IMG/VR virus record: IMGVR_UViG_3300046011_006206
Location: 1 to 40,555 of that record
Direction: 5' to 3' (one strand)
From: a virus
Length of the DNA: 40,555 bases
This document shows, one piece after another, positions 9,171 through 39,965 of the stretch. The notes beneath the pieces are model-generated. The model had not been told where the DNA came from and did not search any database. It saw only the letters and a list, made by a program, of their open reading frames with translations. Numbering within the stretch: the first letter of the stretch is position 1; every line of letters begins with the position of its first letter. Both the position numbers and the translations under genes were made by a program.

Positions 9171-10268
9171 TTAGTCGCTTTGGATAGTTGCTTGGCCAGG
9201 TGCTGTCAAAGGTATTCCTTCAAACTTCCAATCATATGTTCTGTTATTTGTAAATGTTCTAACAGTGTTATCAAAAATAACAGCAGCATATTCTTTTGAT
9301 GTTGATCCACTTATGCTAACGTTGGGAACGGCACTATAAGTTCCACCAGCAGTAACGGTCACAGCACTGATGTTACCCTGTGACACTGTGGCTGTAGCTG
9401 CTGCTGCGCCTGTTTCAAAGTCCACATCTGCTGCGGTGTAAAGACCATCACCTGCATAAGTTACTGCAACTTGTGTAACGGACCAAGTTACGTTGACATT
9501 TGCTCCTGCACCACCTTCTGCACTGGCAGCAAGGGCTATGGGATTGCTGGGGATTACACTGTAAACACCAGTATCAGTTACACTAATGCCGTTGATATCA
9601 AAGCGGAAGTTCAATGTAGCATTGCTACCTTGTGTTCCTATTACACTTGTTGGTGCAACACTAAGACCGCCAGTTCCCGGCAAAGATGTGCCCACAAATA
9701 CGCCGGCATTTATTATTGTTAATCCCGTAATGGCGCCCCCGCCGCCAATAGTTGCTACTTGAACATTCCCTGAGGTAGTCCAATCAGTGCCACTGAAAAT
9801 CAAGTAGCTGTTAGTACCGTAACCAGTGCCTGCGTTTTGTGTTGTGACGTTGCCAATTTTAACACTATTGACTGTAACGTTGCCAGTTGCTGTGCTTGTC
9901 CCGCCAATAACACTGAGTTTTTCGCTAGGCAAATAACTATCGCCGACAGGACCTTTTCCAGCCAAGTTTACAGCTACAGCCCCTAGTCCTAGGCGTGCTG
10001 CCACTGTGGCTCCGCTACCGCCCGCGCCCCATGGGGTAACCACGATGTTTGCTTGTCCTGCTGTTGTAAGGGCACCATTGACCAAGCTGACTTGACCACT
10101 TGCTACACCGGCATTGGCACGCATGACATAACGTCCTGTGCCTGTTTGTCGAGTAATATATGCATCGGTATAAGGCGCTCCTTGGCCAGGAATCCAAGCT
10201 GTTGCAGCTATCTGTTGGCCTGTAACACCAGTATTACCTATAAACTTCTTGTTAATCGGGCGTCCCAT
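9171..10268 (-). CDS. Late beta-rich virion protein, MGRP family
   Basis: 365 aa, almost entirely Gly/Ala/Thr/Val/Ser with repeating short beta segments, typical of phage fibre or capsid-surface proteins. The N terminus MGRPINKKFIGN matches that of its upstream neighbour (MGRPLNPRYFG). A good Shine-Dalgarno AAAGGAG precedes ATG. A perfect late promoter TATAAATA lies upstream at 10334-10327 on the minus strand, and a terminator follows. The near-absence of Cys and the repetitive glycine-rich composition support an extracellular structural role. Exact position in the virion is unknown. Confidence 0.8.
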   Translation of the reverse strand: MGRPINKKFIGNTGVTGQQIAATAWIPGQGAPYTDAYITRQTGTGRYVMRANAGVASGQVSLVNGALTTAGQANIVVTPWGAGGSGATVAARLGLGAVAVNLAGKGPVGDSYLPSEKLSVIGGTSTATGNVTVNSVKIGNVTTQNAGTGYGTNSYLIFSGTDWTTSGNVQVATIGGGGAITGLTIINAGVFVGTSLPGTGGLSVAPTSVIGTQGSNATLNFRFDINGISVTDTGVYSVIPSNPIALAASAEGGAGANVNVTWSVTQVAVTYAGDGLYTAADVDFETGAAAATATVSQGNISAVTVTAGGTYSAVPNVSISGSTSKEYAAVIFDNTVRTFTNNRTYDWKFEGIPLTAPGQATIQSD

Positions 10269-10325: not shown

Positions 10326-10700
10326 TTATTTATAGTTCATTACAGCATCAATAATACAAACATAAGATTGCTGTGGATTTACAAGATGGGCATGAAAAGT
10401 CCAGGGATATTTTTGACCATGGAAATCCCAAACAAACAAGTTGGTTATTCTACTGCAATAAAATATTTGATCATGAGGATCTTGAAATCGCAAGAGCATG
10501 TTGCCATTGTGATCTAGATTGTTTGCCAGCTTGCAAAGCCCCTGACTACCTGACAGTGTTTGTCGACAAATATAGCTGTGTTTGTTGGTTTGATTAACTA
10601 TCCATGCAGCTTGAACTTTGTCATGTAGGCGTACAACTGGCAGCAGCACAGGTTGTCCCCGTGGAACACCAAAATAACGAGGATTTAACGGCCGGCCCAT
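10326..10700 (-). CDS. Small MGRP-family late protein
   Basis: 124 aa. The first 11 residues (MGRPLNPRYFG) match the start of the downstream minus-strand gene, but the rest is unrelated, with several His, Cys and aromatic residues (FYCSRITNLFVWDFHG). Start ATG lacks a clear Shine-Dalgarno site. A weak TATAAAGC lies immediately upstream, too close to serve as promoter. The last codons double as the late promoter of the next gene. Perhaps a short virion component sharing an attachment peptide with its neighbour. The function is not known to me. Confidence 0.65.
   Translation of the reverse strand: MGRPLNPRYFGVPRGQPVLLPVVRLHDKVQAAWIVNQTNKHSYICRQTLSGSQGLCKLANNLDHNGNMLLRFQDPHDQIFYCSRITNLFVWDFHGQKYPWTFHAHLVNPQQSYVCIIDAVMNYK
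10327..10334 (-). promoter_or_regulatory. Late promoter, perfect TATAAATA
   Basis: The minus strand reads TATAAATA exactly. It is made from the last codons of the upstream gene (Asn-Tyr-Lys-stop, AAC TAT AAA TAA). The leader contains a 5-bp hairpin (GCGGT/ACCGC) and GCCTT/AAGGC before the Shine-Dalgarno site. Confidence 0.85.
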
Positions 10701-11303: not shown

Positions 11304-12184
11304 TTAAACCATTGTTTAAATGGGCTGGTGGCAAGAGCAAAATGCTCAAATACTACCAACCTTATATGCCAGCTGCTCCTATCAAGACTTACAGTGAGCC
11401 ATTTTTTGGTGGCGGGGCTATGTTTGCTCATGTGATTGAAAAATACAATCCACAGGAAGTCTGGATTAACGATATCAACAGCGACATAATCAACATCTAT
11501 CAGAGTATTGTTAGCGATTTCCAAGATTTTTGCGATTGTTTACAACAGCATAGTCAGGAATATCTGCAAGGCAACTATGACCAGCGCCGTGCATATTATT
11601 ATAAAGTTCGTGAAGAACATGCATGGGATTGGGAAAAGTGGTCAAAAACTCAGCAAGCTGCTGTGTTGTATTTTCTCATGCGCACAGGATTTAACGGCAT
11701 TTGGCAAATCAACAAAAACACCAACAATCGCTATGGCACGCCTTGTGGCTTGCTTACAGAAACTCAAGTATATGATCCCGATAACTTGCAAGCATGGCAC
11801 GATGCATTAACACAACGACAAGTTCATATTACGTCAGGTGATTGGAGCCAAGTTCCTATTTGTGACTTTGTGTTTTGTGATCCTCCCTATCGCGATAGTT
11901 TTGCTGATTACAATCAACCATTTCCAGATATTGAGCTGGAAAAGCTTGTAAAAACTGTGGAACAAAATGATAATTTTTGGTTGTGCAATCGTGATAGCGG
12001 CGACGGATTCTTTGACAAAGTGCAAGCGCACGTGGTAAAAATACCTGTGACATATACAGCAGGGCGTCGTAAAAAAACACAAACAGGCTTTGAAGCCAAG
12101 AAAGCCATGGAAGTGTTGATTTTTCGCAATCTTGTCGCGGCGCCAAACAGTAGTTTGTTTTATCAGGAGTCATCACATGGCTAA
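11300..12184 (+). CDS. dam: Dam-type DNA adenine-N6 methyltransferase
   Basis: 294 aa, alpha-class (Dam/DpnIIA/T4 Dam) enzyme. The AdoMet-binding motif FKWAGGKSKML is at residues 6-16, EPFFGGGAMF near 33-42, and the catalytic DPPY is at 194-197. Dam-family enzymes usually methylate GATC, and GATC is frequent in this window. Start TTG overlaps the preceding TGA. The motif at residue 6 makes any other start unlikely. Paired with the EcoRI-like nuclease it could protect phage DNA. Alternatively it is an independent modification enzyme as in many T4-like phages. The 3' end overlaps gp62 by 8 nt. Confidence 0.93.
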   Translation: MIKPLFKWAGGKSKMLKYYQPYMPAAPIKTYSEPFFGGGAMFAHVIEKYNPQEVWINDINSDIINIYQSIVSDFQDFCDCLQQHSQEYLQGNYDQRRAYYYKVREEHAWDWEKWSKTQQAAVLYFLMRTGFNGIWQINKNTNNRYGTPCGLLTETQVYDPDNLQAWHDALTQRQVHITSGDWSQVPICDFVFCDPPYRDSFADYNQPFPDIELEKLVKTVEQNDNFWLCNRDSGDGFFDKVQAHVVKIPVTYTAGRRKKTQTGFEAKKAMEVLIFRNLVAAPNSSLFYQESSHG

Positions 12185-12665
12185 AGAATATGCATTGGAT
12201 ATCAAACAGGTATTAAGTGCTATTGATACACAAAAGCTTGACTATTACAGCCAACTAACTGAACAAGAACGCCGAGCTTATAGTCCTTTTGTGATCATGC
12301 GTTATCTCAGTAGTTTGGCCAACAACAGTGCTTTACAATCTTATGCTATTTTGGCAGTAAATGATCTGGTCAATATTGGATTCAGTGACTTGAGGGATCA
12401 TGCTGAACTACAGCATCTATTGCTATGTTGTGCAGGTGCTGGCAGCAAACAGTTTCATCCCTGGATACCAGTTGCACGAGCAAAAAAACGACGCGACAAT
12501 CCCATTGTGGAACTTATACAAAACTATTATCCTCAACTCAACAGTCAAGAACTGTCAATCATGCTGGCAACTATCACGCAGCAGCAGGTGATTGACTTAG
12601 CAGTTGCTAGTGGTTATGCAGAAAATAAAGTTCAAGAGCTAGTCAAACTCCACAGTGCAAAATGA
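12177..12665 (+). CDS. 62: Clamp-loader small subunit (T4 gp62-like)
   Basis: Subunit of the gp44/62 complex that loads the gp45 sliding clamp. 162 aa (T4: 187). The pattern SPFVIMRYLSSLANNSALQSYAILAVNDL matches the gp62 segment with YSKFMVENALSQFPE...YAMNLIG, and LLLCCAGAGSKQFHPWIPVAR matches YLMAAVPRGKRYGKWAK. ATG 12177 is chosen for its AGGAG site, and it overlaps the methyltransferase end by 8 nt. In T4 gene 62 is coupled to gene 44. Here no gene 44 or 45 is nearby and the partner is the methyltransferase. Confidence is moderate because gp62 is a divergent family. Confidence 0.8.
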   Translation: MAKEYALDIKQVLSAIDTQKLDYYSQLTEQERRAYSPFVIMRYLSSLANNSALQSYAILAVNDLVNIGFSDLRDHAELQHLLLCCAGAGSKQFHPWIPVARAKKRRDNPIVELIQNYYPQLNSQELSIMLATITQQQVIDLAVASGYAENKVQELVKLHSAK

Positions 12666-13339
12666 CTTTTGTATGCGAGTTTTGCAAAAGATTTTTTGCA
12701 AAAGAAAAAACTTGGTATAATCACAGTTGTGAAAAGAAAAGACGTTGGTTTAACCGAGACACAGCTCAAGGTCGCTTGGCGTTTTACAGTTGGCAGAGAT
12801 TTCATGAGCTTAGTGGCATGCGTAACATGAAAAAAGTCACACAGGAAGATTTTATTTCCAGTGCATTTTATGGAGCTTTCAACAAGTTTTCCACTTATGT
12901 TATTGAAAACGATGTTGTAGCTCCCCGGGCATTTATTGATTTTGTTATTCGCAGCAATATACCTGTGGATAAATGGTGTCAAGAAAGCTTGCTGGTGTTG
13001 TATGTACATGACTTGATTGCAACGGAAAATTGTGATCAAGCTCTTGCTCGCAGCGTGGAATATCTTGCCAAATGGGCGCAACAAAATGACACAGCTTGGT
13101 GCGAATTTTTTCGTATGGTAAATACCAATATGGGCACACAAATCATTTGTCATGGCAGAATCAGTCCTTGGTTGATATACAATGCCGACAGCAGTGCAGA
13201 GTTTTTGCAACGCTGTAGCCATGAACAAGTGTCCATGATACAAAACTGGGCTCCTGCTCATGTGTGGAAACTCAAGTTCAAAAGCCATCCACAAGATGCA
13301 GATTTTGCCCGTGAGATGTTAGCACAAGCAGGAATGTAA
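12662..13339 (+). CDS. Zinc-finger protein of replication operon
   Basis: 225 aa. An N-terminal finger has C5-x2-C8 and H21-x-C23 (CEFC...NHSC), immediately followed by a basic run (KKRRWFNRD) that suggests nucleic-acid contact. The rest is helical with many aromatic residues (AFYSWQRFHELSG, WCEFFRMVNTNMG). Proteins with this finger plus EKKRR and an aromatic helix occur in other marine T4-like phages as I recall, of unknown function. It is ATGA-coupled to gp62 and TAATG-coupled to the next gene, so it is expressed early with the clamp loader. Confidence 0.8.
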   Translation: MTFVCEFCKRFFAKEKTWYNHSCEKKRRWFNRDTAQGRLAFYSWQRFHELSGMRNMKKVTQEDFISSAFYGAFNKFSTYVIENDVVAPRAFIDFVIRSNIPVDKWCQESLLVLYVHDLIATENCDQALARSVEYLAKWAQQNDTAWCEFFRMVNTNMGTQIICHGRISPWLIYNADSSAEFLQRCSHEQVSMIQNWAPAHVWKLKFKSHPQDADFAREMLAQAGM

Positions 13340-13686
13340 TGAAAAAGTTTTTAGTAGAGCCCCAAGAAATCTGGAATATTCCCATTAAAGCTGAACCCCG
13401 GGTAGTTGAGCAAATACAGTTTGGCGGACAATATAGCAACGATAGCGATGACAGCAACAGTCTGCCCTTGACAAAAAAGACTTCTGATTGGCAGATTGAG
13501 GGGGCCTGGGTAGTAGTATCAGACCAACAAGGTAACCGGCAACGTGTTCCCGGTGAACAGGTGATTCAACAGTTGGTGCGAGAAAATCAAGATTTAAAAA
13601 CCCAAATGACCAAGATGCAACAGGAACACAGAGAAATCATGTCCCGACTCAGTCAGTTAAACACCCGGTTACGTCAGAGAACATGA
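13339..13686 (+). CDS. Small coiled-coil protein
   Basis: 115 aa. The first half is extended and acidic (FGGQYSNDSDDSNS) with a short beta stretch (GAWVVVSDQQGNRQRVPGEQ). The C-terminal ~45 residues form a clear coiled coil rich in Gln and Glu with leucine/methionine heptads (LVRENQDLKTQMTKMQQEH, IMSRLSQLNTRLRQ). It shares one base with the previous stop and is ATGA-coupled to the DnaE-like gene, suggesting that the two products act together. No family recognised. Confidence 0.75.
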   Translation: MKKFLVEPQEIWNIPIKAEPRVVEQIQFGGQYSNDSDDSNSLPLTKKTSDWQIEGAWVVVSDQQGNRQRVPGEQVIQQLVRENQDLKTQMTKMQQEHREIMSRLSQLNTRLRQRT

Positions 13687-14273
13687 TAGATTTTGATATC
13701 GACATTGACGTGGCCGCCAGAGAGCAAGCCCTAGCAGACATCAAACATATTCCTGCTAGCTTGCTTAGAAATGATCGCTTGGAAAAACACAACACCGGGG
13801 TGTATTTCCACAATGTACCTCAAGATCCTGTTACTGGTTATTGCAGCTTGCCCTACAAGCAAGCTCAGCAACAGGGATTGTTCAAAATTGACATACTCAA
13901 TGTAAACGTCTACGAGAAGGTCCGCAGTCCTGCGCATTTGCAAGAACTATGTGATCGTGATTTCAACTGGCAGTTAATGACTTATCCTGAGTTTGTTGCA
14001 CAACTGATCCATCTTCACAATCATGCTGATTTAACAGCACGATTGGCCCCTAAAAGTCTAGAAGACATTGCTATCATTTTGGCGTTGATTAGACCCGGTA
14101 AACAATGGCTTATCAATCGTTGTTTGGAACATGGGCTGTCTAGTGCTGATCCCGACATTTGGCAGCGCAGTGACCAAGGTTACCATTTTAGGAAATCTCA
14201 TAGTTTTGGTTATGCCATGTTGGTGAAGGTTCATGCAGAAATAATCGTTGACGAAGTTTCACAATCATTATAA
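13683..14273 (+). CDS. Miniature DnaE-like polymerase-core protein
   Basis: 196 aa with the landmarks of bacterial DNA polymerase III alpha palm in the same order but compressed. DFDIDI at 3-8 corresponds to DFDVDF (catalytic D401/D403 of E. coli DnaE, here D5 and D7). RNDRLEKHNTG at 29-39 corresponds to RNAGKHAGG. GLFKIDILN at 65-73 corresponds to GLVKFDFLG (D555, here D70). LALIRPG at 133-139 corresponds to LFRPG. FRKSHSFGYAML at 169-180 corresponds to FNKSHSAAYALV. PHP, thumb, clamp-binding and OB domains are missing. Whether it polymerises or regulates is unknown. Coupled to the preceding coiled-coil gene. Confidence 0.8.
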   Translation: MIDFDIDIDVAAREQALADIKHIPASLLRNDRLEKHNTGVYFHNVPQDPVTGYCSLPYKQAQQQGLFKIDILNVNVYEKVRSPAHLQELCDRDFNWQLMTYPEFVAQLIHLHNHADLTARLAPKSLEDIAIILALIRPGKQWLINRCLEHGLSSADPDIWQRSDQGYHFRKSHSFGYAMLVKVHAEIIVDEVSQSL

Positions 14274-14297: not shown

Positions 14298-14747
14298 ATG
14301 CAGCTACAGCTAGCCAGTTCAATGTTTGGATGTCATGCCCATGTGGTGCATGAAGACAACACTTGGGATTTGGGATATATTGAAGACGCAGAACTTGCAG
14401 GTAAGTTTCGTCAACGCTTGCATGGTGATGTTTGGATGTGGCGCAATCCACGTTGCCAGCCACGTGAACTGCGAGATATTCTCGTAAGTCTCGAGCATGC
14501 AAGCGACCAGTTCAGTGTGCGCTTGCGTGCCGTGGAAAACAGTGATGATTTTTATGCTATTTTGGCTGTAAACAATGAACTGGTGGCCCGCACGCTTGCA
14601 TGGAAAACCATGCAGCACTGGCAAAAGTGGAGTCGACAAGAAGAAACTCAATATCTAAGAGAACAGCGTGTTAAGTTTGAACCAAAAGTCAGTGCTGATG
14701 GTAAAACTGTAAAAGTGAGAGTGAAAGTTAGTACTCTAGGCGATTAA
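14298..14747 (+). CDS. Unknown early protein
   Basis: 149 aa, with its own early promoter and a good AGAGAGG site 7 nt before ATG. The N-terminal half is His/Cys/Trp-containing (FGCHAHVVHEDNTWDLGYI, GDVWMWRNPRCQPRELRD). The C-terminal half is helical then strongly basic and beta (KFEPKVSADGKTVKVRVKVSTL). No known family. Its stop TAA shares TTAA with the stop of the convergent minus-strand gene, so no terminator separates them. Confidence 0.75.
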   Translation: MQLQLASSMFGCHAHVVHEDNTWDLGYIEDAELAGKFRQRLHGDVWMWRNPRCQPRELRDILVSLEHASDQFSVRLRAVENSDDFYAILAVNNELVARTLAWKTMQHWQKWSRQEETQYLREQRVKFEPKVSADGKTVKVRVKVSTLGD

Positions 14748-15118
14748 ACTTCGCGCACCAAAGTAATGGTGCGTCGTTTTACTCGTTTGTTTAACATTTC
14801 ACGTAGATTTACTGTGGGACCTTGAACTACACGACTTTCTTTGCTTGCAAAAGTTTTTAATACGGTTCTAAACTCTTGAAAGTCTTGCCCCATAAACAAA
14901 TTTATGGGGATATTTCTGTTGCTTTCCCACCACCAAGTTTCACCACAAACTAGAAACCTTTTCTTGCGAACATCAGTCCAGTTGTCATCCCAAGCATAAA
15001 TGTTGATAAACTGTTGATCAGCTTGTTGAATGATTCCTAGATACTCGTTGTTGAGATATTGCACTACACTGAGAAAGGGATATCTTTGTTGCAAGTCGGT
15101 TAGTTCCTGTGGTGTCAT
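14744..15118 (-). CDS. Conserved unknown protein of marine T4-like phages
   Basis: 124 aa. The segments PFLSVVQYLNNEYLGIIQQ, GETWWWESNRNIPINLFMGQDF and QGPTVNLREM recall a small protein conserved among T4-like cyanophages, with the GxTWWWESNRxxPINxF core intact. No function is known to me. Shine-Dalgarno AAGGAA precedes ATG. The only clear promoter in the 63-bp divergent gap points the other way. A GAATAAAATAG stretch is a weak late-promoter candidate. It ends tail-to-tail with the neighbouring gene. Confidence 0.8.
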   Translation of the reverse strand: MTPQELTDLQQRYPFLSVVQYLNNEYLGIIQQADQQFINIYAWDDNWTDVRKKRFLVCGETWWWESNRNIPINLFMGQDFQEFRTVLKTFASKESRVVQGPTVNLREMLNKRVKRRTITLVREV

Positions 15119-15181: not shown

Positions 15182-15994
15182 ATGTCCACTATTACCCTTT
15201 ATTCTTATCAACAACAGCTATATTGGATGTATGATGCACCTGGAACTTTCCTGCAGACATGGCCCATGATTCAATATAAGCAAAAAATATACAAAGGCGT
15301 TACTAACACCCTGCAAATGCTGGTGCGTAATGTTGATCGGAGACCTGTGGACATTACCGGTCTCACTCTAACTGCTCAAATGATTAATGTGGAAACACAA
15401 CAGACAGTTTTGGTTAAAAGTGTCACAACTACCAATGCTGCTCAAGGCCAAGCTGTAGTTGACATACAAGAAACTGATATTCAGTTTTTGCCTTTGGGAT
15501 TTTACAATATTCAGCTTACCAGCACTGATGACAGCAATGTGCAACGTTTTCTTTACAGTGATCAATATCAAGACATTGATGTGGCAGTGGAAATTTTAGC
15601 TGGCACTCAACGTGAACTTGTTCCAGCCACAGTAATCACTAACTTCACACCCACACCGCTCAACTGGTGGACTGATATTTTATACGTGAGTTCCAGTTTA
15701 CCTGGCAATGCACAAACAGGTGAGACTTCGGGGACTCATACATGGGTGGTTTACACAACCAACTGGTTGGGCAAGCTTTGGATGCAAGGCAGTTTGACAG
15801 AAAATGTGCCCACAGATAACGAATGGTTTTTCATTCCTCTAACAGCTGACACCAACTACAAACAATGGACTGGCGACGATCAGCCCACAATATGGCAGGG
15901 CAGCACCACACAAAATCTCTACTGGGTGCGTTTTGTTTATCAAAGTGCTCTTGGCAACACAGGAACGTTTGACAAAATACTCTACAAAAGCTAA
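15182..15994 (+). CDS. Probable virion protein, beta-rich
   Basis: 270 aa, predicted largely beta with Thr, Gln and Trp. The first ~130 residues (YKGVTNTLQMLVRNVDRRPVDITGLTLTAQMIN..., VVDIQETDIQFLPLGFYNIQLTSTDD) look like an immunoglobulin-like or BppU-N-type sandwich found in phage baseplate and fibre proteins. The second half (WTDILYVSSSLPGNAQTGETSGTHTW) is another beta domain. Late promoter supports a structural role. No Shine-Dalgarno site is evident. The exact virion location is not known. Confidence 0.75.
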   Translation: MSTITLYSYQQQLYWMYDAPGTFLQTWPMIQYKQKIYKGVTNTLQMLVRNVDRRPVDITGLTLTAQMINVETQQTVLVKSVTTTNAAQGQAVVDIQETDIQFLPLGFYNIQLTSTDDSNVQRFLYSDQYQDIDVAVEILAGTQRELVPATVITNFTPTPLNWWTDILYVSSSLPGNAQTGETSGTHTWVVYTTNWLGKLWMQGSLTENVPTDNEWFFIPLTADTNYKQWTGDDQPTIWQGSTTQNLYWVRFVYQSALGNTGTFDKILYKS

Positions 15995-16002
15995 ACCATG
16001 TA

Positions 16003-17040
16003 ATGGTATCTGTAGCAGATGTAGTTGGTCAATGGATTCCTGCGCGAGCTAGAACCGCTAGTAAAGGCTGGAAAAGTGCAAATGCAGTATGTTGCAGCCA
16101 TCGCGGACACAGGCCTGACACTCGTGGTCGTGGCAACTGGTTGATTGATGGACAATCACACGTTTCCTACAGTTGTTATAACTGTGGATATCGTTGTAGA
16201 TATACAGGTGATGGCCTAACTGACAGTTTTCGCATGCTGCTGTCGTGGATGTCTGTTCCACAAGAAATTATTGACAGTTTAAAAATGCACGAGCTGCAAA
16301 AAAGCCTTGAAGGCAGCTCCAGCACAGATTCTCTTCCGGCCATTACGTTAGACGTGAAGTTTGAACCTGATGCTTGGCCCTTGAACAGCCAGTTAATGAG
16401 TAAACTTGTCGAGGAAAACAATCAAGATCCTGATTTTCTACAAGCTTGGCACTATATCAATCAGCGTGGCTCTAGTATCATGAGAAACAGTGAATACTTT
16501 TGGTCACCTCACGGGGGACGATGGAAAATGAAACACAGAGTTCTCGTTCCCATGAAAGATCACAAACAAGCCACAGTGGGTTACAGTGCGCGATGGGCAG
16601 GAACCCCACCTGCTGGGCAGCCTAGATATGTCAACAGCAAGTTGCCCACAGACTATTTGTTCAACAGTCATGTGCTGTATAATAGCAGACACTTTGTGAT
16701 TGTAGTTGAGGGACTTTTGACTGCCATAAGTATTGATTGTGTAGCTGTCATGAGCCATGTGTTAAGTCAAGGGCAAATATCTCAGCTGCAAAAATCTGGC
16801 AAACAAATAATCATAATGCCTGATCAAGAACAACAGAATCAAGACTTAATTGATCAAGCATTACAGTTGGATTGGGCTGTGAGTTTCCCACAATGGGAAA
16901 AATCATGCAAAGATGCAGCAGATGCAGCTCAGCGTTATGGTGAGTTGTTTACAATAAGAAGCATAATTCAGTCTCGCACTACAAGTGATTTGAAAATAGG
17001 CGTATTACGACAGGCCATGGGTAAAAACAATGGATTCTAA
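16003..17040 (+). CDS. 61: DNA primase (T4 gp61-like)
   Basis: Makes RNA primers for lagging-strand synthesis with the gp41 helicase. An N-terminal zinc-binding region has C30/C31, H33/H36 and C58-x2-C61. A TOPRIM fold follows, with the conserved glutamate in VVEG (E236) and the acidic pair region in IIMPDQE (D274), then CKDAADAAQRYG. 345 aa, close to T4 gp61 (342 aa). The gene overlaps gp41 by 11 nt, consistent with primosome coupling. Start ATG has no clear Shine-Dalgarno site. It begins 8 bp after a late gene, so some expression may be by read-through. Confidence 0.92.
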   Translation: MVSVADVVGQWIPARARTASKGWKSANAVCCSHRGHRPDTRGRGNWLIDGQSHVSYSCYNCGYRCRYTGDGLTDSFRMLLSWMSVPQEIIDSLKMHELQKSLEGSSSTDSLPAITLDVKFEPDAWPLNSQLMSKLVEENNQDPDFLQAWHYINQRGSSIMRNSEYFWSPHGGRWKMKHRVLVPMKDHKQATVGYSARWAGTPPAGQPRYVNSKLPTDYLFNSHVLYNSRHFVIVVEGLLTAISIDCVAVMSHVLSQGQISQLQKSGKQIIIMPDQEQQNQDLIDQALQLDWAVSFPQWEKSCKDAADAAQRYGELFTIRSIIQSRTTSDLKIGVLRQAMGKNNGF

Positions 17041-18427
17041 AAAACACGAATACAGCGAGGCCAAGCAAAAGCTGTTGATTGATATATTAATGAGCAGTGA
17101 GGAAGTTTTTATTCGCTGTCAGAATATTCTCAAACCACAGTATTGGAATCAAAAGTTTCGCAAAGCCATCAAGTATATTTTGGACTATGTTGATGATCAT
17201 AAAGCATTACCAAAAATACAACAACTCAATGTTGAGACTCAAAGTAACTTTGAGTTGATTCCTGATATCAACACACATCATATTGAAGCCTTTTTGCAGG
17301 AAATTGAAGAGTTTTGTAAAAATCGTGCATTGGCTGAAGCTGTGTTATCGGCAGTGGATCTTATTGAAAAGGGCAACTATGGTGAAGTAGAGAAACGAGT
17401 TCGCGATGCCATTCTCATTAGTTTGGTAAGTGATGTAGGCACAGATTACTTTGCCGATCCACGCGAACGTCTTAATCGTATCAAAAGCAACAACGGACAA
17501 GTAAGCACAGGCTGGAAAACTGTTGATCAGAAACTATATGGTGGTGTAAATCGTGGTGAAATCACTATTTGGGCTGCACCCAGCGGTGTGGGCAAAAGTT
17601 TGTTTTTGCAAAATCTCAGTTTGAGTTTTGTTAAACAAAAACTCAACGTGATTTATATCAGTCTCGAGCTCAGTGAAGAACTAACCAGCATGCGAGTGGA
17701 CAGCATGTTGACTGGCGTAGCAACTACTGATATTTTCCGTAAACTTGATGACGTGGAAATCAAAGTCAAGCAAACCAGTCGTTCATCAGGAACTTTTCAC
17801 ATCAAGCAAATGCCACAAGGCAGCACAACCAACGACATCAAAGCCTATCTCAAGGCATATGAGATTAAAACCGGGCAGCGAGCAGACGCCTTGATTGTGG
17901 ACTATTTGGATTTGTTGTATCCCAACAACAAAAAGATCAATCCCAGTGACTTGTTTATCAAGGACAAGTTTGTTGCCGAAGAGCTTCGCGGCTTGGCTGT
18001 GGAGCGTAAAATACTTTGCATGACAGCCAGTCAGCTAAATCGCGGTTCAATCAACGAGCAGGAACATGATCAAAGCATGATTGCTGGTGGTATCAGCAAA
18101 ATCCACACAGCAGACAATGTTATCACAATCTATGCCACACAAGCTATGAAAGAACGTGGACAATACCAAATCCAGTTTATTAAAACACGTAGCAGCAGTG
18201 GCGTGGGCAGCAAGTTGTTTTTGGGCTATGATCCAGCAACACTGAAAATATTTGATCTTGAAGATCAAGGTCAAGTGCAACAGGCACAGGCAGGAGTGGT
18301 TACAGATGTGCTGGCTGATCTTCGTAGAAAAAGCACACAACCTCCGCCCAAATCAGATACTCAACCACCAGTTGCTGCAAGCAAAATGCAGGATCTCAGC
18401 AAGCTAACAAGCTTGATACGACGTTAA
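17030..18427 (+). CDS. 41: Replicative DnaB-type helicase (T4 gp41-like)
   Basis: Hexameric 5'-3' helicase of the replication fork. A helical N-terminal domain comes first (residues 1-130). The RecA-like core has Walker A APSGVGKS at 183-190, ISLELSEELTSMRVDS (motif H1a region), Walker B ALIVDYLDLL near 285, and SQLNRG plus a Q-loop-like segment. 465 aa, close to T4 gp41 (475 aa). The start overlaps the primase gene. The C terminus is a Pro/Gln-rich tail ending SKLTSLIRR. A hairpin with an embedded late promoter follows the stop. Confidence 0.95.
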   Translation: MDSKKHEYSEAKQKLLIDILMSSEEVFIRCQNILKPQYWNQKFRKAIKYILDYVDDHKALPKIQQLNVETQSNFELIPDINTHHIEAFLQEIEEFCKNRALAEAVLSAVDLIEKGNYGEVEKRVRDAILISLVSDVGTDYFADPRERLNRIKSNNGQVSTGWKTVDQKLYGGVNRGEITIWAAPSGVGKSLFLQNLSLSFVKQKLNVIYISLELSEELTSMRVDSMLTGVATTDIFRKLDDVEIKVKQTSRSSGTFHIKQMPQGSTTNDIKAYLKAYEIKTGQRADALIVDYLDLLYPNNKKINPSDLFIKDKFVAEELRGLAVERKILCMTASQLNRGSINEQEHDQSMIAGGISKIHTADNVITIYATQAMKERGQYQIQFIKTRSSSGVGSKLFLGYDPATLKIFDLEDQGQVQQAQAGVVTDVLADLRRKSTQPPPKSDTQPPVAASKMQDLSKLTSLIRR

Positions 18428-28539: not shown

Positions 28540-29913
28540 ATGACTATTGTAGTTACCAGCCAAATTCAGCACCGTAGAGGTTTGCGTAGCGATTTACCCG
28601 TTCAACTTAGCGAAGGCGAGTTGGGTTGGTGCTTGGACACCCGCCAGTTGTTTATAGGCAACAGTGATGGATTTGGAGACAACACTGAAATCATCACGCA
28701 GTTTAGTCAAGATGTTTTAAGCAATGTCAATGTTTTAGCTACCAATACAACATTTGCTAGAGTTCTTGCCGACAGATTTGCTGACGTTTTCAATGTAAAA
28801 GATTTTGGTGCAACTGGTGTTTTTGCACAAGATGCAACTGGTGCTGTGCAAGCAGCGGTTAACGCAGCTTTGGCGGCAGATCGAGCCACAGTGTATTTTC
28901 CATCAGGTCAGTATAAGGTAGGAGCCATCACTATTGGTCCCAATATCACTATAGTGGGTGATGGAACTGGTGTAAGTGAAGTTTATGCTAGAGACTCTGG
29001 TCAAGATATATTCACATACACAGAAACTACAGTTACAAACACAAATATAAACATCAGCCAACTATCGTTTATCAGTCAGAATCCCGGAGCAGGCACAGCA
29101 GTATATATTTCAGGCACAGATGCTGCCATCCGCGTTGTTTATATTAGAATAACTGATTGCGAATTTGGTTTATTAAACAAAGCTGTGCATTTGCGTTTTT
29201 CTGCAAATATTTGGTTGAACAATCTTCAAGCGCAAAGTTGCACTACTCCCTATTACATAGACACCTGCGGTGACGTGAACTTCAACAGTTGTCATGCACA
29301 AAACGGCACAGGATATGGATACACTCTTATTCAAAGCGAGTCTCCACGGGGACCTTCTAGTGAAGGACAACGGTTGATCAACTGTGAATCTAATGGTCAA
29401 AAAGGCATTTATGCCAACGAAATTCACTGGGCAAATGTAATTGGCGGCAGCTTTACCAGTGGATTCCCCTCGGGCACAACACCTACGCCCACAAGTGATC
29501 CCATGGTTGATTTGGTGAACTGTGCAAACTGGAGATTCCAAGGCACTGACATTTCCTTTGCAGGAACAGGTGGATACTGGGGACCGGGCTTGCACACTGA
29601 CAGCGATTGCGAAAGAATACAACTTACTGGTTGCTTTGTTGCGCTAAACACCTATGCTGCCAATATAGATGGTCGTTGGAATACGGTTACTGGTTGTGTA
29701 TTCAGTCCCAATGGAACAAGTGACATTGATGTAAAAGGCAAATATACCACAATAACTGGCAACACTTGTGCAAGTGCAATAACACCCAATATTACCGAAA
29801 GCGGCACTGCCGACTACAATAACTTTGTGGGTAACATATGTAACGATGGATTGATTACTACAGGGGCTAATACTATAGTTGGTACTAATATTACATCTCA
29901 CCCTAATACTTAA
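28540..29913 (+). CDS. Tail spike/fibre with Mtd-like N terminus and pectate-lyase fold
   Basis: 457 aa. The N-terminal IQHRRGLRSDLPVQLSEGELGWCLDTRQLFIGNS matches the short virion-attachment domain also found at the start of major tropism determinants. After a linker, FNVKDFGATGVFAQDATGAVQAAVNAA (from about residue 85) is the start of a pectate-lyase-3 right-handed beta helix. The rest shows regular turn repeats with Asn ladders (NNLQAQSCTT, FNSCHAQNGTG). Probably binds or degrades a surface polysaccharide. No catalytic residues can be assigned. Late promoter and GGAGA site. Confidence 0.88.
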   Translation: MTIVVTSQIQHRRGLRSDLPVQLSEGELGWCLDTRQLFIGNSDGFGDNTEIITQFSQDVLSNVNVLATNTTFARVLADRFADVFNVKDFGATGVFAQDATGAVQAAVNAALAADRATVYFPSGQYKVGAITIGPNITIVGDGTGVSEVYARDSGQDIFTYTETTVTNTNINISQLSFISQNPGAGTAVYISGTDAAIRVVYIRITDCEFGLLNKAVHLRFSANIWLNNLQAQSCTTPYYIDTCGDVNFNSCHAQNGTGYGYTLIQSESPRGPSSEGQRLINCESNGQKGIYANEIHWANVIGGSFTSGFPSGTTPTPTSDPMVDLVNCANWRFQGTDISFAGTGGYWGPGLHTDSDCERIQLTGCFVALNTYAANIDGRWNTVTGCVFSPNGTSDIDVKGKYTTITGNTCASAITPNITESGTADYNNFVGNICNDGLITTGANTIVGTNITSHPNT

Positions 29914-32856: not shown

Positions 32857-33957
32857 ATGAGCAAACAGCAATACAACCTTTCCACTACAACTGATTATTT
32901 GTCTAGGAAAATGTTTCTGGATCCTCAGGGTCCAGTAACTATTCAACGTTTTGAAGAGGTGAAATACAAGCGCATAGCAGACTTTGAACTCACAGCTCGT
33001 GGATTCTTTTGGGTTCCTGAAGAAATTGATCTTACAAAAGACGCAGCAGATTTCAAAAATGCCAGTGACGCAGTCAAGCATATTTTCACCAGCAACTTGC
33101 TAAGGCAAACTGCACTAGACAGCTTGCAGGGGCGAGCACCTACTCAGGTGTTTACGCCAGTGTGCAGTATCCCCGAGCTGGAAGCTATCATGTATAACTG
33201 GGGCTTTTTTGAAACCAATCTACACAGCAAAAGCTACAGTCACATCATTAGAAACATCTACAATGTGCCCAAGGATGTGTTTAATACCATTCATGACACG
33301 CAGGAAATCGTGGACATGGCCAGCAGTGTGGGCGGATATTATGATGATCTACATTTACTCAACTGCAAAAAAGAGCTGGGGCTGCCAGTTAGCGAAGCAG
33401 AACATATTCGCGCCATTTGGATGGCACTGCATGCAAGCTATGCGCTGGAAGCACTGAGGTTTATGGTAAGTTTTGCCACAAGTCTTGCCATGGTGGAAAA
33501 CAAAATCTTCATGGGCAATGGCAACATCATTAGTTTGATTCTACAAGATGAACTGCTGCACAAGGGTTGGACAGCTTGGATAATCAATCAGCTTGTGAAA
33601 GAAGATGCAAGATTTGCACAGGCACGAGAAGAATGCCAAGGAGAAGTTTATAAACTTTACTTGGATGTCATACAAGAGGAAAAAGACTGGGCTGACTATC
33701 TGTTTAAGAAAGGTCCAGTTATTGGGTTGAACGCTGCTATTCTCAAAGATTTTGTGGACTTCACAGCCAATCAATCTCTAAAAGACATTGGTATTCGCTA
33801 CGCAACTCCCAGCCCTAAAACCACTCCTATTCCTTGGTTCAACAAGCATGTGGAGACTGATAAAAAGCAAACAGCTTTGCAAGAATCCGAAAGCACAAAC
33901 TACATTGTGGGCGTAATGGGCGATCAAATCAACTATCAGGAACTACCTGCCATTTAA
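32857..33957 (+). CDS. nrdB: Ribonucleotide reductase small subunit, class Ia
   Basis: Carries the diiron-tyrosyl radical used by NrdA. 366 aa. Iron-ligand and radical motifs are visible: TALDSLQGRAP (Asp), FFETNLHSKSYSHI (Glu, His and the radical Tyr), ALEALRFMVSF (Glu) and QDELLH (Glu, His). The first Glu and His are spaced by one more residue than in E. coli (ETNLH versus ETIH). ATG 32857 follows GAGG and starts 10 bp after nrdA. An in-frame ATG at 32791 lies inside nrdA and is unlikely. The 3' end overlaps the convergent gene by 15 bp. Confidence 0.95.
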   Translation: MSKQQYNLSTTTDYLSRKMFLDPQGPVTIQRFEEVKYKRIADFELTARGFFWVPEEIDLTKDAADFKNASDAVKHIFTSNLLRQTALDSLQGRAPTQVFTPVCSIPELEAIMYNWGFFETNLHSKSYSHIIRNIYNVPKDVFNTIHDTQEIVDMASSVGGYYDDLHLLNCKKELGLPVSEAEHIRAIWMALHASYALEALRFMVSFATSLAMVENKIFMGNGNIISLILQDELLHKGWTAWIINQLVKEDARFAQAREECQGEVYKLYLDVIQEEKDWADYLFKKGPVIGLNAAILKDFVDFTANQSLKDIGIRYATPSPKTTPIPWFNKHVETDKKQTALQESESTNYIVGVMGDQINYQELPAI

Positions 33958-35772
33958 TAAGGTCAGTAAGTCCCATGTAACTGTCTTTACAACGCCAGTC
34001 CAGTCCTGTGGCTGCGACTGGCGGTAAAGCGTCATGTCGCAATACCACGGGGAGGTTTTAGCCTCGTGATGCCCCCAACGCCAACAACTGTTGTAAGGCA
34101 ATAACGCCCAAGACTTTTTGGCCAAAGCACCAGACAAGTGTAACACACTGGTATCCACTGAGATTACTAAATCGCAATAGTGTATTATTGCTGCTGTGTC
34201 ACTGAAATCTTTTATAGGTTCAGGTAATATAGATACGTTGTGATATTTCCCGATAATGTCTTGCTCCTGACTGGTAGTATCGGTGTGTAACACATGGAAA
34301 TCACAAGGCAACTGAAACAGTGGTTCCAGTGACTGCAAGTTAATATTTCTATTGCGGGCATTTTTGTGATCAGGATTACCACGCCAAGCAATCCCCACTT
34401 GTAAACGTGGAGTTTTTGCACGGGCAGGCCGCCACATGAGAAGGTTGTCCGCATCTAATTGAAAATAGCTGTTGTGTTGCGCTTGGAAGTCCCATTGGCT
34501 GCTCATGCAATGGGGAATACTCATCATGGCAACTTGATAATCCACATCACCAGGTCCCGGAAGCTGTTCTTGTATATGATCACACCCCGGAAGTCCTTGA
34601 AATAATCTATGCAAGGGCTGAGGAATTATTACATGAGTTTGCGCACCTTGCTTTTTCAGCCATTGGATATATCTAGCAAACTGAATACTGTCGCCGTAAC
34701 CTTGTTCATGTATTACAGCAATCTTTTTGTTGCTTAATATTTGTTGCCCGTTATACACAGGAATATCTTGTGATAAAACTTGTGGGATCTCCCGATGTTC
34801 CCAATAACACCATGCTTGTTGCCAACTGTGGGTTTTAAACAAAGCTATGCTATGATTAAAAGCCACATCGCGATTATCAGGTGCCCAAGTTGCTGCTTGT
34901 TGAAAGTCTTGTAACGCAGCAACATAGTTCATGATGTCAAGAAAATACGTGCCACGATTGTTTCTAGCTGCTATGTTGCGAGGATCAATTTCCAAGCTGC
35001 GATTGGCATCTTGTATAGCCTCTGTGGTTTTTCCTTGTGCGTGGAAAATCACACTGCGATTGTTCCAAGTTTCACTAGCACAAGGATTGTGTTGCAACGC
35101 TTGTGAATAACATTGCAAGCTCATGTCTAGGTTTTTTACTGCTTGCCATGCCACAGCCATGTTGTGCCAGCCCTGAGTGTGATCCAGAAGATTTGCCTGC
35201 AGAGCATCGTGCAGAGCTTGAGAAACGTTGTTTTGTTTATAACAAACACTGCTGCGATTATTCCACCAAAGAGCCTGCTGGGGTTCGCGTATTATAAGCT
35301 GATCGTAAACTTGTTGTGCAAGGTCATAGTGTTGTTGTTGCTCACAGGCATTGGCAACTAAATCCCAACCAAATGTAGTGTCAAGATTTTTGATATTCTG
35401 CCAGACATCCTGCCATGTGTTGAGATCTTCAAGATGAATCAAGTTAATAAGTTTGCAGATTTGTATTCGGGTGTCTTGCTGATAAAACTGTTCAGCTTGC
35501 TTGCATGCTTGCAAACTGTTGGGCCATTGTTGTGTGTCTTGATAGACCAAGGCTAGGTTATACCAAGGTTCCCACGCTTGCGGTAATAGTTGCACTGCAT
35601 GCATCAGCCATTTTTGTGCTGTGGTAGTTTGTTTTAAGTTACGTAAACAAACACCGCCAATATGCCATGCGTCTGCATGCTGTGCGTTTTTGTCTACTAG
35701 ATCTTGACAGATCTCCCAGGCTGATTGCCAGTTGTTATTCTTGTATAAATCCCATGCAGTTTCTATGTCCAT
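33943..35772 (-). CDS. TPR protein with glycosyltransferase-like C terminus
   Basis: 609 aa. About nine TPR-like helical repeats fill residues 1-310 (A-W/Y-NLALVYQDTQQW, AWHNMAVAWQAVKNLD, ETWNNRSVIFHAQGK, AARNNRGTYFLD). The C-terminal ~290 residues resemble GT-B glycosyltransferases of the heptosyltransferase/family-9 type: KIAVIHEQGYGDSIQFARYI, QVGIAWRGNPDHKNARNRN and DLVISVDTSVLHLSGAL. Bacterial TPR-GT9 proteins with this layout are common. In a phage it may modify a virion protein, DNA or host surface sugar. The start has no Shine-Dalgarno site. TATAAT lies 6 bp before ATG without a good -35. It overlaps nrdB at its 3' end. Confidence 0.85.
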   Translation of the reverse strand: MDIETAWDLYKNNNWQSAWEICQDLVDKNAQHADAWHIGGVCLRNLKQTTTAQKWLMHAVQLLPQAWEPWYNLALVYQDTQQWPNSLQACKQAEQFYQQDTRIQICKLINLIHLEDLNTWQDVWQNIKNLDTTFGWDLVANACEQQQHYDLAQQVYDQLIIREPQQALWWNNRSSVCYKQNNVSQALHDALQANLLDHTQGWHNMAVAWQAVKNLDMSLQCYSQALQHNPCASETWNNRSVIFHAQGKTTEAIQDANRSLEIDPRNIAARNNRGTYFLDIMNYVAALQDFQQAATWAPDNRDVAFNHSIALFKTHSWQQAWCYWEHREIPQVLSQDIPVYNGQQILSNKKIAVIHEQGYGDSIQFARYIQWLKKQGAQTHVIIPQPLHRLFQGLPGCDHIQEQLPGPGDVDYQVAMMSIPHCMSSQWDFQAQHNSYFQLDADNLLMWRPARAKTPRLQVGIAWRGNPDHKNARNRNINLQSLEPLFQLPCDFHVLHTDTTSQEQDIIGKYHNVSILPEPIKDFSDTAAIIHYCDLVISVDTSVLHLSGALAKKSWALLPYNSCWRWGHHEAKTSPWYCDMTLYRQSQPQDWTGVVKTVTWDLLTLLNGR

Positions 35773-38724: not shown

Positions 38725-39057
38725 ATGTTAATAACTGCACCAACTGATATTGGTTCAATAGTATCTATTAAACTACAAAGTGGAGTTGAGCTTATCGGCA
38801 AACTGCATGCGCAAGATGCTACTACAGTTACGCTGGCCAAGCCTCTTATAGTTGATTTGACCATGGATCCACAAACACAAAAAGTAGCTATTGGCATGGC
38901 ACCGGGGTTTGTTTTAGGGGCTGATTGGGATCAAAACGTCAGTTTAAATCGAGACCACATCACCACGTTAGTAAAATCAGCTCAAGCCATGCAAGACAAT
39001 TATACCCAAAGCACCAGCACTATTGCTTTGCCACGTAGGTCGGGTATTATTCAGTGA
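38725..39057 (+). CDS. Sm-like small protein
   Basis: 110 aa. IGSIVSIKLQSGVELIGKLHAQDATTVTLAKPLIVDL fits an Sm/LSm-type five-stranded barrel, as in a small protein conserved in T4-like cyanophages. The second half is SLNRDHITTLVKSAQAMQDNYTQSTS, helical. ATG 38725 follows AAAGGA. A longer frame from 38659 would overlap the peptidase gene. The stop overlaps the next start (GTGA). Possibly RNA-binding or structural. The function is not known to me. Confidence 0.75.
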   Translation: MLITAPTDIGSIVSIKLQSGVELIGKLHAQDATTVTLAKPLIVDLTMDPQTQKVAIGMAPGFVLGADWDQNVSLNRDHITTLVKSAQAMQDNYTQSTSTIALPRRSGIIQ

Positions 39058-39965
39058 CTTTAACTTTCCCGGGCATACGCACATTTTTGCGCAGTTGGAC
39101 CAGTCAGCAACCACAAACAGCTTTCGTGGTTGTGGGCTTGCCCAGTGATTGTGCAACAAGCCATAGACCCGGTGCACGCATGGCTCCTGCTGCTATAAGG
39201 CATAGCAGTTTACATTTAGTTGATGGGGTTTGTGATGATTGGCCTGTTGATGTTACCCAGAACCTAACTGATCTTGGCGACGCCAATCTCAGCACGGGCA
39301 ATCTTGCAGTAACATTGACTGAAATACAGCAGTTGATTTTACAACTGCATGCAGCTGAACATCACGTAGTTGCCATGGGCGGTGACCACAGTGTGACTTT
39401 GGGTATTTTACGCGGCATGCATCATCGCTATCCGCGTCTAGCGTGTGTGCATTTGGATGCACATTGTGATACTTGGCAACGTCATGGCAGTCAGCCTCAG
39501 GGACATGGTACTTGGTTGCGTAATGCCATTGAAGAAGGACTAATAGATCCTGAAAAAACAGTGAGTATTGGTGTAAGAAGTCCTGCAGACAATCCCACAA
39601 GATTTTGGTTGAACACTCAAGGTGGCTTGACCATTTCAGCTAGATCAGCCATGAGGGCGCAGCCTTACGAATTATTTGCTAGTATTCTAGAGCGTATTGG
39701 CGACACGCCCTGTTATTTTACCCTGGACATTGATGTCCTAGACCCTGCTTATGCTCCAGGGACAGGAACTCCCGAGATAGGCGGATTGACTAGCATGTGG
39801 GTTGATGAGTTTATCGACTGCATGCATGTTTTAAATTTAGTAGGCATGGATTGTGTGGAAGTTGCTCCGGCATATGATCACAGTGAGATTACCAGTTTGG
39901 CAGCGGCAACTTTCATGTGGAGATATCTCAGCATGCAAATACACAAAGCTGGACAATCTAGTTGA
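39054..39965 (+). CDS. speB: Agmatinase-family ureohydrolase
   Basis: 303 aa. It contains the family signature set: GLPSDCATSHRPGARMAPAAIR, GGDHSVTLG (H112), HLDAHCD (D135, H137, D139), HGTWLR and LDIDVLDPAYAPGTGTPEIGG (D225, D227). All metal ligands are present, so it should be active. The HGT-x-L and S-x-RPGAR features suit agmatinase (agmatine to putrescine and urea) or guanidinobutyrase better than arginase. Polyamines neutralise packaged phage DNA in T4. GTG start overlaps the Sm-like gene stop. A strong early promoter overlaps its stop. Confidence 0.88.
   Translation: MTLTFPGIRTFLRSWTSQQPQTAFVVVGLPSDCATSHRPGARMAPAAIRHSSLHLVDGVCDDWPVDVTQNLTDLGDANLSTGNLAVTLTEIQQLILQLHAAEHHVVAMGGDHSVTLGILRGMHHRYPRLACVHLDAHCDTWQRHGSQPQGHGTWLRNAIEEGLIDPEKTVSIGVRSPADNPTRFWLNTQGGLTISARSAMRAQPYELFASILERIGDTPCYFTLDIDVLDPAYAPGTGTPEIGGLTSMWVDEFIDCMHVLNLVGMDCVEVAPAYDHSEITSLAAATFMWRYLSMQIHKAGQSS

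What the first reader, a model, noticed from the sequence alone, without database searches (positions are those of the whole stretch)
13683..14273. A 196-residue DnaE-like protein that keeps the full catalytic aspartate triad
Five DnaE landmarks occur in order (DFDIDI, RN-x-KH-x-G, GLFKIDIL, ALIRPG, F-KSH-x-YA), and D5, D7 and D70 correspond to the polymerase aspartates D401, D403 and D555 of E. coli. A family-C polymerase of this size would be far below any I know, and the phage group normally uses a family-B polymerase (gp43). It may be a mini-polymerase, a nucleotide-binding regulator, or a decoy for host replisome parts. I cannot say whether relatives are already described.
Basis: partly seen in the sequence, partly recalled or inferred. 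Interest (0 to 1): 0.8.

Follow-up and report, generated by a model that had tools for sequence, protein, structure and literature searches.

The report
Half of a split phage polymerase
This small gene in a T4-like virus of bacteria encodes the metal-binding half of a stripped-down bacterial-type DNA polymerase whose other half is encoded elsewhere in related virus genomes, an oddity already reported from genome comparison; we found no laboratory test of it.

Summary
ORF 13683-14273 (196 aa) is a DnaE-derived protein with D5, D7 and D70 at the places of E. coli D401, D403 and D555. It is not a complete mini-polymerase. It belongs to phrog_11778, which I identify with the C-terminal unit of the split, minimal DNA polymerase III alpha that Iyer et al. 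2021 described in 'group 2.2' jumbo phages. The other unit (phrog_11127) carries the nucleotide-binding GRGS motif.

Tested here: AlphaFold models of the two units align to non-overlapping stretches of E. coli DnaE (about 277-393 and 398-784). Both genes occur in 12 of 12 named phage genomes checked and in 9 of 9 checked IMG/VR contigs of 228 kb or more. The 12 named genomes also encode a family-B polymerase. Catalytic residues are invariant; dN/dS is about 0.04-0.05. The C-half is usually flanked by gp62-like, zinc-finger, primase and helicase genes, the N-half by gp44.

Against activity: thumb region, R390, R709 and R710 appear lost. The 40.5-kb window shows no N-half. Best reading: with its partner it forms a small auxiliary polymerase, perhaps extending primers. 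Binding, activity and role are inferred.

The parts
13683..14273 (+). C-terminal half of split minimal Pol III alpha (phrog_11778), 196 aa
13695..13709 (+). D5-I-D7-I-D9 motif; D5 and D7 at E. coli D401 and D403 (metal ligands), D9 at D405
   Evidence: invariant in 16 of 16 (A1) and 63 of 63 (A3)
13788..13799 (+). H36-N-T-G39, placed at E. coli H511 and G514 by motif (by eye)
   Evidence: H36 and G39 invariant in 16 of 16 and 63 of 63
13884..13892 (+). K68-I-D70, at E. coli K553 and D555 (third metal ligand)
   Evidence: invariant in 16 of 16 and 63 of 63
14091..14102 (+). R137-P-G-K140, at the DnaE RPG motif of the fingers (R639)
14187..14213 (+). residues 169-177 with the KSH landmark; H173 at the proposed E. 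coli steric-gate residue H760, Y177 at Y764
   Evidence: H173 invariant in 63 of 63, Y177 in 58 of 63
12132..12665 (+). gp62-like small clamp-loader subunit (phrog_11758; weak phrog_225, E=4e-4); conserved neighbour. The listed TTG start overlaps the upstream gene and may be too far upstream (inference)
12662..13339 (+). zinc-finger-like protein (phrog_11058; zf-C2H2 match below cut-off), unknown function, conserved neighbour with a phage distribution close to that of the C-half
13339..13686 (+). short coiled-coil protein; its stop overlaps the start of the C-half
14744..15118 (-). conserved opposite-strand gene (phrog_11637), unknown function
15182..15994 (+). virion structural protein family (phrog_14467), conserved neighbour
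16003..17040 (+). gp61-type DNA primase, conserved neighbour
17030..18427 (+). gp41-type DnaB-like helicase, conserved neighbour

Best explanation
The protein is the metal- and template-binding half of a minimal family-C DNA polymerase split inside its palm domain. Shown here: it corresponds to DnaE about 398-784 with large deletions; in relatives a second protein, mostly 158-184 aa, corresponds in its last 100 residues to DnaE about 277-393 and carries the nucleotide-binding GRGS motif; both genes occur together across relatives, at separate places, with invariant catalytic residues. Inferred: the window's own phage also has the second gene; the two chains bind each other without covalent joining (neither chain has room for an intein) and rebuild one active site, so neither works alone. 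Inferred, less surely: the heterodimer is an auxiliary DNA polymerase beside the phage's family-B replicase.
For: Fold: C-half model residues 1-194 align to E. coli 2hnh 398-781 (Z 10.0, 3.6 A, 189 aligned) and 1-195 to Taq 3e0d 459-841 (Z 10.6); best unrelated row Z 2.8. N-half model (of a relative, L121, not of the window's own partner): residues 79-178 align to Mtb 5lew 306-413 (Z 12.0) and 78-178 to E. coli 5fku 277-393 (Z 10.1); hmmsearch of the N-half profile hits E. coli DnaE 286-393 at 2.4e-7. The two stretches adjoin without overlap. Both halves: 12 of 12 named records, chosen from the C-half hits; SCTP-2; 10 of 16 IMG/VR contigs, each chosen because it had at least one half, including 9 of 9 of 228 kb or more. 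Family-B polymerase in 12 of 12 named. Catalytic residues invariant. Gene order. dN/dS 0.037 and 0.052. [quoted passage not shown] B. subtilis DnaE extends primers and hands to PolC (PMC5627055 abstract).
Against: I found no biochemistry. R709 and R710, reported to interact with the incoming nucleotide, lie in an E. coli stretch (643-738, 96 residues) that only about 12 phage residues span, so they are probably lost; R390 aligns with a nearly invariant Glu (54 of 55). The stretch between E. coli 405 and 511 (thumb region) is 27 residues instead of 106, so DNA grip is doubtful. PHP and C-terminal parts are absent. No N-half in the window or in 5 other contigs with close C-halves (0 of 6); all are fragments of at most 112 kb. 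Sequence matches of the C-half profile to solved DnaE are not significant on their own (best E 0.014), and Foldseek E-values are modest (best 1.1e-3). The primer hand-off role rests on gene neighbourhood and analogy only.
Confidence: 0.65

Rival explanations
1. Non-catalytic replisome subunit: the halves kept the polymerase fold but now serve as a scaffold or regulator that links clamp loader, primase and helicase, or binds host replisome parts.
For: R390, R709 and R710 equivalents, thumb region and C-terminal parts appear to be missing; relatives have another replicase; usual association with gp62, gp44, primase and helicase genes.
Against: D5, D7, D9, K68, D70 and H173 are invariant in 63 of 63 and 16 of 16 aligned proteins, and G-R-G-S in 12 of 12 named N-halves; a scaffold does not need metal ligands or a steric gate.
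Confidence: 0.2
2. A nucleotidyltransferase with another substrate: the rebuilt Pol-beta-like site makes primers, adds nucleotides to ends or modifies something other than a DNA primer.
For: Site with intact metal ligands and GRGS but without the DNA-gripping parts; shortened fingers.
Against: The His proposed as sugar-selecting steric gate in DnaE is invariant; the genes sit in the replication cluster; a primase is already encoded next door.
Confidence: 0.1
3. Stand-alone 196-residue mini-polymerase, as first suggested.
For: Full Asp triad and fingers motifs in one short chain.
Against: The chain starts after the nucleotide-binding part of the palm (structural match begins at E. coli 398); that part is a separate gene in 12 of 12 named genomes and in 9 of 9 contigs of 228 kb or more that were checked.
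Confidence: 0.04
4. Decaying fragment of a host dnaE gene.
For: Much shorter than cellular DnaE.
Confidence: 0.01

Closest known systems
Split minimal DNA polymerase III alpha of group 2.2 jumbo phages, C-terminal unit (Iyer et al. 2021, PMC7824862); phrog_11778 (the identity of the two is my inference; their Figure 3 and accessions were not seen)
   Same: Stand-alone C-terminal catalytic part, a separate N-terminal unit elsewhere in related genomes, no other DnaE domains, family-B polymerase in the same related genomes, T4-like phages
   Different: Nothing of substance seen; the window is a metagenomic member 32-43% identical to the 60 listed cultured-phage records, and its own N-half was not found in the 40.5-kb fragment
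CBB_328 of phage CBB (172 aa, PMC5259590) and gp316 of Atu_ph07 (PMC6102473); by position and annotation I take these to be the N-half, phrog_11127
   Same: The other half of the same split enzyme, noted there as a truncated, or a predicted, Pol III alpha subunit
   Different: The N-half carries GRGS, not the Asp triad; separate gene
Bacterial DnaE/PolC (family C)
   Same: Palm and fingers fold, Asp triad, K553, H760 and Y764 positions
   Different: About 370 residues in two chains against 1160 in one (E. coli); no PHP, thumb or C-terminal domains (names recalled); R390 position changed, R709 and R710 probably lost
Cyanobacterial split DnaE (recalled, not fetched)
   Same: DnaE encoded by two distant genes
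   Different: There inteins join the parts and the split is elsewhere (recalled); here no intein-sized extension exists on either chain (lengths)

Membership tests
Split minimal Pol III alpha of group 2.2 jumbo phages, C-terminal unit | Stand-alone protein spanning only the metal- and template-binding part of Pol III alpha | tested here: met
   Model 1-194 aligns to E. coli 398-781; phrog_11778 E=8e-54 over residues 4-190
Split minimal Pol III alpha of group 2.2 jumbo phages, C-terminal unit | Separate N-terminal NTP-binding unit in the same genome | tested here: inconclusive
   Not in the window or in 5 related contigs (0 of 6), all fragments; present in 12 of 12 named relatives and in the 453-kb contig whose C-half is 53% identical
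Split minimal Pol III alpha of group 2.2 jumbo phages, C-terminal unit | T4-like jumbo phage with family-B polymerase | tested here: inconclusive
   Window has terminase, SSB, UvsX-like, helicase, primase and DnaB-like genes but is a fragment and was not searched for DNA_pol_B; named relatives have DNA_pol_B in 12 of 12. Slicko01 is only 141 kb, so the family is not confined to jumbo genomes
Family-C DNA polymerase (DnaE) | Three catalytic Asp in order | tested here: met
   D5, D7, D70 = D401, D403, D555
Family-C DNA polymerase (DnaE) | GS nucleotide-binding motif in the same chain | tested here: not met
   Absent from the 196 aa; found in the separate N-half of relatives
Family-C DNA polymerase (DnaE) | Thumb, PHP and C-terminal clamp/OB domains | tested here: not met
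   D9-H36 is 27 residues against 405-511 in E. coli; structural match spans only 398-784. Domain names recalled
Family-C DNA polymerase (DnaE) | Template-directed DNA synthesis | not testable with these tools
   Needs purified proteins

The most novel reading that the evidence does not exclude
The two phage chains form an active two-subunit family-C polymerase of about 370 residues, the smallest of its family known to me, which lacks a thumb and borrows DNA grip and clamp or primase contacts from the co-conserved zinc-finger and coiled-coil neighbours, and acts as a dedicated primer-extending polymerase ahead of the family-B replicase: a phage counterpart of the two-polymerase replisomes of cells.
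Probability: 0.25. Interest if true: 0.78.

Novelty: new member of a known kind. Interest (0 to 1): 0.42.

Why it matters
A polymerase active site divided between two chains in the middle of the palm, with the genes apart yet both conserved in many T4-like phages, would be a natural test of how little of a family-C polymerase is enough, and of why phages with a family-B replicase keep a second polymerase. Gene order points to concrete candidate partners (gp44, gp62, primase, helicase, a zinc-finger protein) and to a laboratory system: phage Sharanji, listed with E. coli K-12 MG1655 as host, matches both halves.

Tried and rejected
A zinc-ribbon-like reading upstream of the C-half in L013/L014, and a shorter one in L011, lies in another frame than the coiled-coil gene it overlaps and was dropped. 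DxD register: hmmsearch alignments disagreed (Mtb in register, E. coli shifted by two, both with negative scores) and global hhalign misplaced the N-terminus (8-196 on 495-783); I settled it after a self-check. The C-half profile against PDB sequences is not significant by itself (best E 0.014). Foldseek: 0 matches at E 0.001 or less for either model (best 1.1e-3 and 3.5e-3); query TM-scores to family-C chains 0.38-0.56 for the C-half and 0.36-0.41 for the N-half. VIA only re-aligns chains that Foldseek ranks. N-half residues 1-77 had no structural match. Host genomes: 9 genome-contig loci; the one I read, L239, shows the phage gene order, so I take these as phage contigs in genome bins; 1 of 9 read. 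Pol III epsilon idea: an RNase_T (DnaQ-like) protein is encoded in 11 of 14 records and lies near the C-half in several RaK2-like phages, but Phosso, Slicko01 and G007 had no match, so it does not seem required.

Rows dropped before counts: the 12 named records were chosen by me from the 60 listed of 63 C-half hits. A3 holds 63 proteins: P0001, 3 of the 14 loci, and 59 of the 68 readings; one search took 68 of the 80 loci (7 repeat contigs, and L059, L060, L069, L079, L100 left out as near-duplicates or partial). A4 holds 55 of 62 N-half readings from 80 loci; the 62 were picked by a script that required a GxGR(G/A)S match and a length range, so GRGS invariance in A4 is partly built in. A2 (12 named) was located by PF07733, though four minus-strand frames were then found with a GxGRGS pattern. 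Neighbourhood counts use 90 C-half loci, of which L045, L046, L047 repeat the contigs of L001, L006, L012 and others are near-identical, so they are not independent; whether a place lies inside a locus was judged by fixed offsets. The C-half (E 1e-5) and zinc-finger (E 1e-3) record counts used different limits.

Literature: searches listed 7, 4, 1 and 12 (of 20) papers; I opened only PMC7824862, PMC6102473, PMC5259590 and PMC9123017 of these and judged the rest by title and start of abstract. Of PMC7824862 I read section 3.4.1 whole and passages elsewhere; passages only of PMC5259590, PMC6102473, PMC9123017, PMC8485763 and PMC4374717; outline and abstract of PMC5627055. In those searches I saw no experimental study of the proteins; most subscription papers and preprints are outside the library.

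Full report
WHAT IS THERE. The ORF at 13683-14273 (+) encodes 196 residues. Its start overlaps the stop of the upstream coiled-coil ORF (13339-13686), which overlaps the zinc-finger ORF (12662-13339), which overlaps the gp62-like ORF (12132-12665). The window is a 40,555-base virus record with T4-like genes: terminase large subunit, single-strand binding protein, UvsX-like recombinase, a helicase of the UvsW kind, primase, DnaB-like helicase, ribonucleotide reductase.

FAMILY. The protein matches phrog_11778 ('DNA polymerase') over residues 4-190, E=8e-54, and Pfam DNA_pol3_finger just under the curated cut-off (20.4 against 22 bits). tblastn finds 63 of 50,697 phage records; the 60 listed are 32-43% identical and mostly jumbo phages (RaK2, 121Q, GAP32, PA5oct, Atu_ph07, XacN1, CBB, Phosso); Slicko01 and Slickus01 are about 141 kb.

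ACTIVE SITE. In 16 aligned members and 63 aligned members, 75 distinct proteins in all, D5, D7, D9, H36, G39, K68, D70, R137 and H173 are invariant; K140 is kept in 16 of 16 and 62 of 63, Y177 in 16 of 16 and 58 of 63. On E. coli DnaE, D5, D7 and D9 fall on D401, D403 and D405 (74 of 74 distinct N-termini, two alignment modes; 8 of the 74 have the literal DnaE signature PDxDxDF). K68, D70 and R137 fall on K553, D555 and R639, H173 and Y177 on H760 and Y764, H36 and G39 on H511 and G514 by motif; the E. coli gene is. D401, D403 and D555 are the active-site residues and H760 the proposed steric gate (PMC8485763, passages).

STRUCTURE. AlphaFold2 gives pLDDT 93.2, pTM 0.85. Against the PDB the strong matches are family-C polymerases only: Z 10.6 to Taq (model 1-195 on 459-841), Z 10.0 to E. 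coli (1-194 on 398-781), Z 8.2 to 9qrn (968-1304, which I take to be PolC); the next unrelated row is Z 2.8. The protein keeps the palm from the DxD strand onward plus reduced fingers. Two large gaps against E. coli: 27 residues instead of 106 between the D405 and H511 positions (thumb region, name recalled) and 36 instead of 121 between R639 and H760.

THE OTHER HALF. Papers on CBB and Atu_ph07 mention a truncated (172 aa) or a predicted Pol III alpha subunit (PMC5259590, PMC6102473, passages). PF07733 hits a second gene, profile positions between 13 and 125, above its cut-off in 12 of 12 named records, confirmed with a dedicated alignment in 12 of 12. Six of these proteins were scanned and all six match phrog_11127. 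Its profile hits E. coli DnaE 286-393 at E=2.4e-7. The model of one member (L121, from a 462-kb contig that has both halves; pLDDT 93.3, pTM 0.77) aligns residues 78-178 to E. coli 277-393 and 79-178 to Mtb 306-413, Z up to 12. It carries GRGS (E. coli R362-G363-S364). So the N-half ends at about 393 and the C-half begins at about 398: the polymerase is cut within the palm between the nucleotide-binding motif and the metal ligands. Chain lengths (N-half 141-184, C-half 188-216 residues) leave no room for inteins, so joining must be non-covalent (inference).

CO-OCCURRENCE. Besides the 12 named records, SCTP-2 has an N-half, the zinc-finger gene and a C-half that I found by hand (E=1.5e-72). 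Of 16 IMG/VR contigs of 100 kb or more, chosen because they had turned up with one half, 11 have the C-half and 15 the N-half; 10 have both, including 9 of 9 of 228 kb or more; the 6 with one half are at most 191 kb. In the 22 genomes with both (12 named, 10 contigs) the genes are never neighbours (gap of about 11 kb in Slicko01, 14 kb or more elsewhere) but lie on the same strand in 21 of 22. All 12 named records also hold a family-B polymerase match above the cut-off. For the window itself the N-half is not seen: 0 of 6 records (window and 5 C-half contigs, all fragments).

NEIGHBOURHOOD. In viral loci long enough to show the place, the C-half is accompanied by gp62-like 59 of 60, zinc-finger 70 of 70, opposite-strand phrog_11637 86 of 87, structural protein 82 of 83, primase 69 of 70 and helicase 55 of 56; in 12 named loci the same counts are 10, 9, 11, 9, 9 and 10, the misses being in XacN1, RAS14 and Slicko01 (loci not all independent). 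The N-half is accompanied by its flanking small genes (78 of 80, 75 of 77), a GroES-like/head-morphogenesis gene (75 of 76) and gp44 (62 of 69). In Slicko01 gp44, gp62-like, two small genes and the C-half form one run, with the N-half about 11 kb upstream on the same strand, which looks like the two neighbourhoods still joined (inference). The zinc-finger protein occurs in 61 phage records (E 1e-3) against 63 for the C-half (E 1e-5), with nearly the same genus tallies, so it may belong to the same machine.

SELECTION. dN/dS is 0.037 (L006) and 0.052 (L007) against the window gene; three more distant pairs were saturated at synonymous sites.

PUBLISHED STATE. Iyer et al. 2021 (PMC7824862; section 3.4.1 read whole; [quoted passage not shown] PMC9123017 (passages) notes the PF07733 domain in 51.9% of one cluster of jumbo phages. 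The finding is therefore a further member of a described kind. What I add: the split point by two models, residue-level bookkeeping including losses, the two conserved neighbourhoods, the Slicko01 arrangement and co-occurrence in metagenomic contigs. I did not see these in the passages read; Figure 3 and the supplements of the paper were not seen, so I cannot say that they are new.

MECHANISM. Most likely the chains reassemble into one Pol-beta-like active site and add nucleotides. Shown: complementary fold ranges, co-occurrence, invariant ligands. Inferred: binding, activity, role. Against: R709 and R710, reported to interact with the incoming nucleotide (PMC4374717, one passage), fall in a stretch that is mostly deleted; R390 aligns with Glu; no thumb. 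The invariant R137 and nearly invariant K140 might substitute (speculation). For the role, the link to clamp loader, primase and helicase and the B. subtilis precedent (DnaE briefly extends RNA primers before PolC; PMC5627055 abstract) favour primer extension or gap filling; repair is the alternative.

Noticed in passing
12662-13339: Zinc-finger-like protein (phrog_11058, unknown function) has a phage distribution close to that of the polymerase halves (61 against 63 records) and sits upstream of the C-half in 70 of 70 viral loci that could show it
   Followed up: partly
39054-39965: Arginase family protein (PF00491, E=6e-77), to my knowledge an unusual metabolic gene for a phage
   Followed up: no
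9171-10268 and 10326-10700, minus strand: Two adjacent ORFs share an MGRP(I/L)N N-terminus; 9171-10268 had no Pfam match at E 0.01
   Followed up: no
33943-35772, minus strand: 609-aa protein with many TPR repeats and a weak, sub-threshold glycosyltransferase-9 match near its C-terminus
   Followed up: no
28540-29913: Mtd_N plus pectate-lyase-like protein, perhaps a tail-fibre or receptor-binding protein
   Followed up: no
L024 and L230 (Alishewanella phage Slicko01): In this 141-kb genome both polymerase halves and gp44-gp62 lie within about 12 kb on one strand, perhaps the arrangement before the halves drifted apart
   Followed up: partly
L237 (Rossellomorea phage phiT1): A DnaE annotated as two ORFs (gp20, gp18) with a small ORF between, apparently a different kind of split
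   Followed up: no
W02 (PA5oct) 217618-221395: Family-B polymerase matches fall in two open frames about 2.5 kb apart, perhaps an interrupted gp43
   Followed up: no
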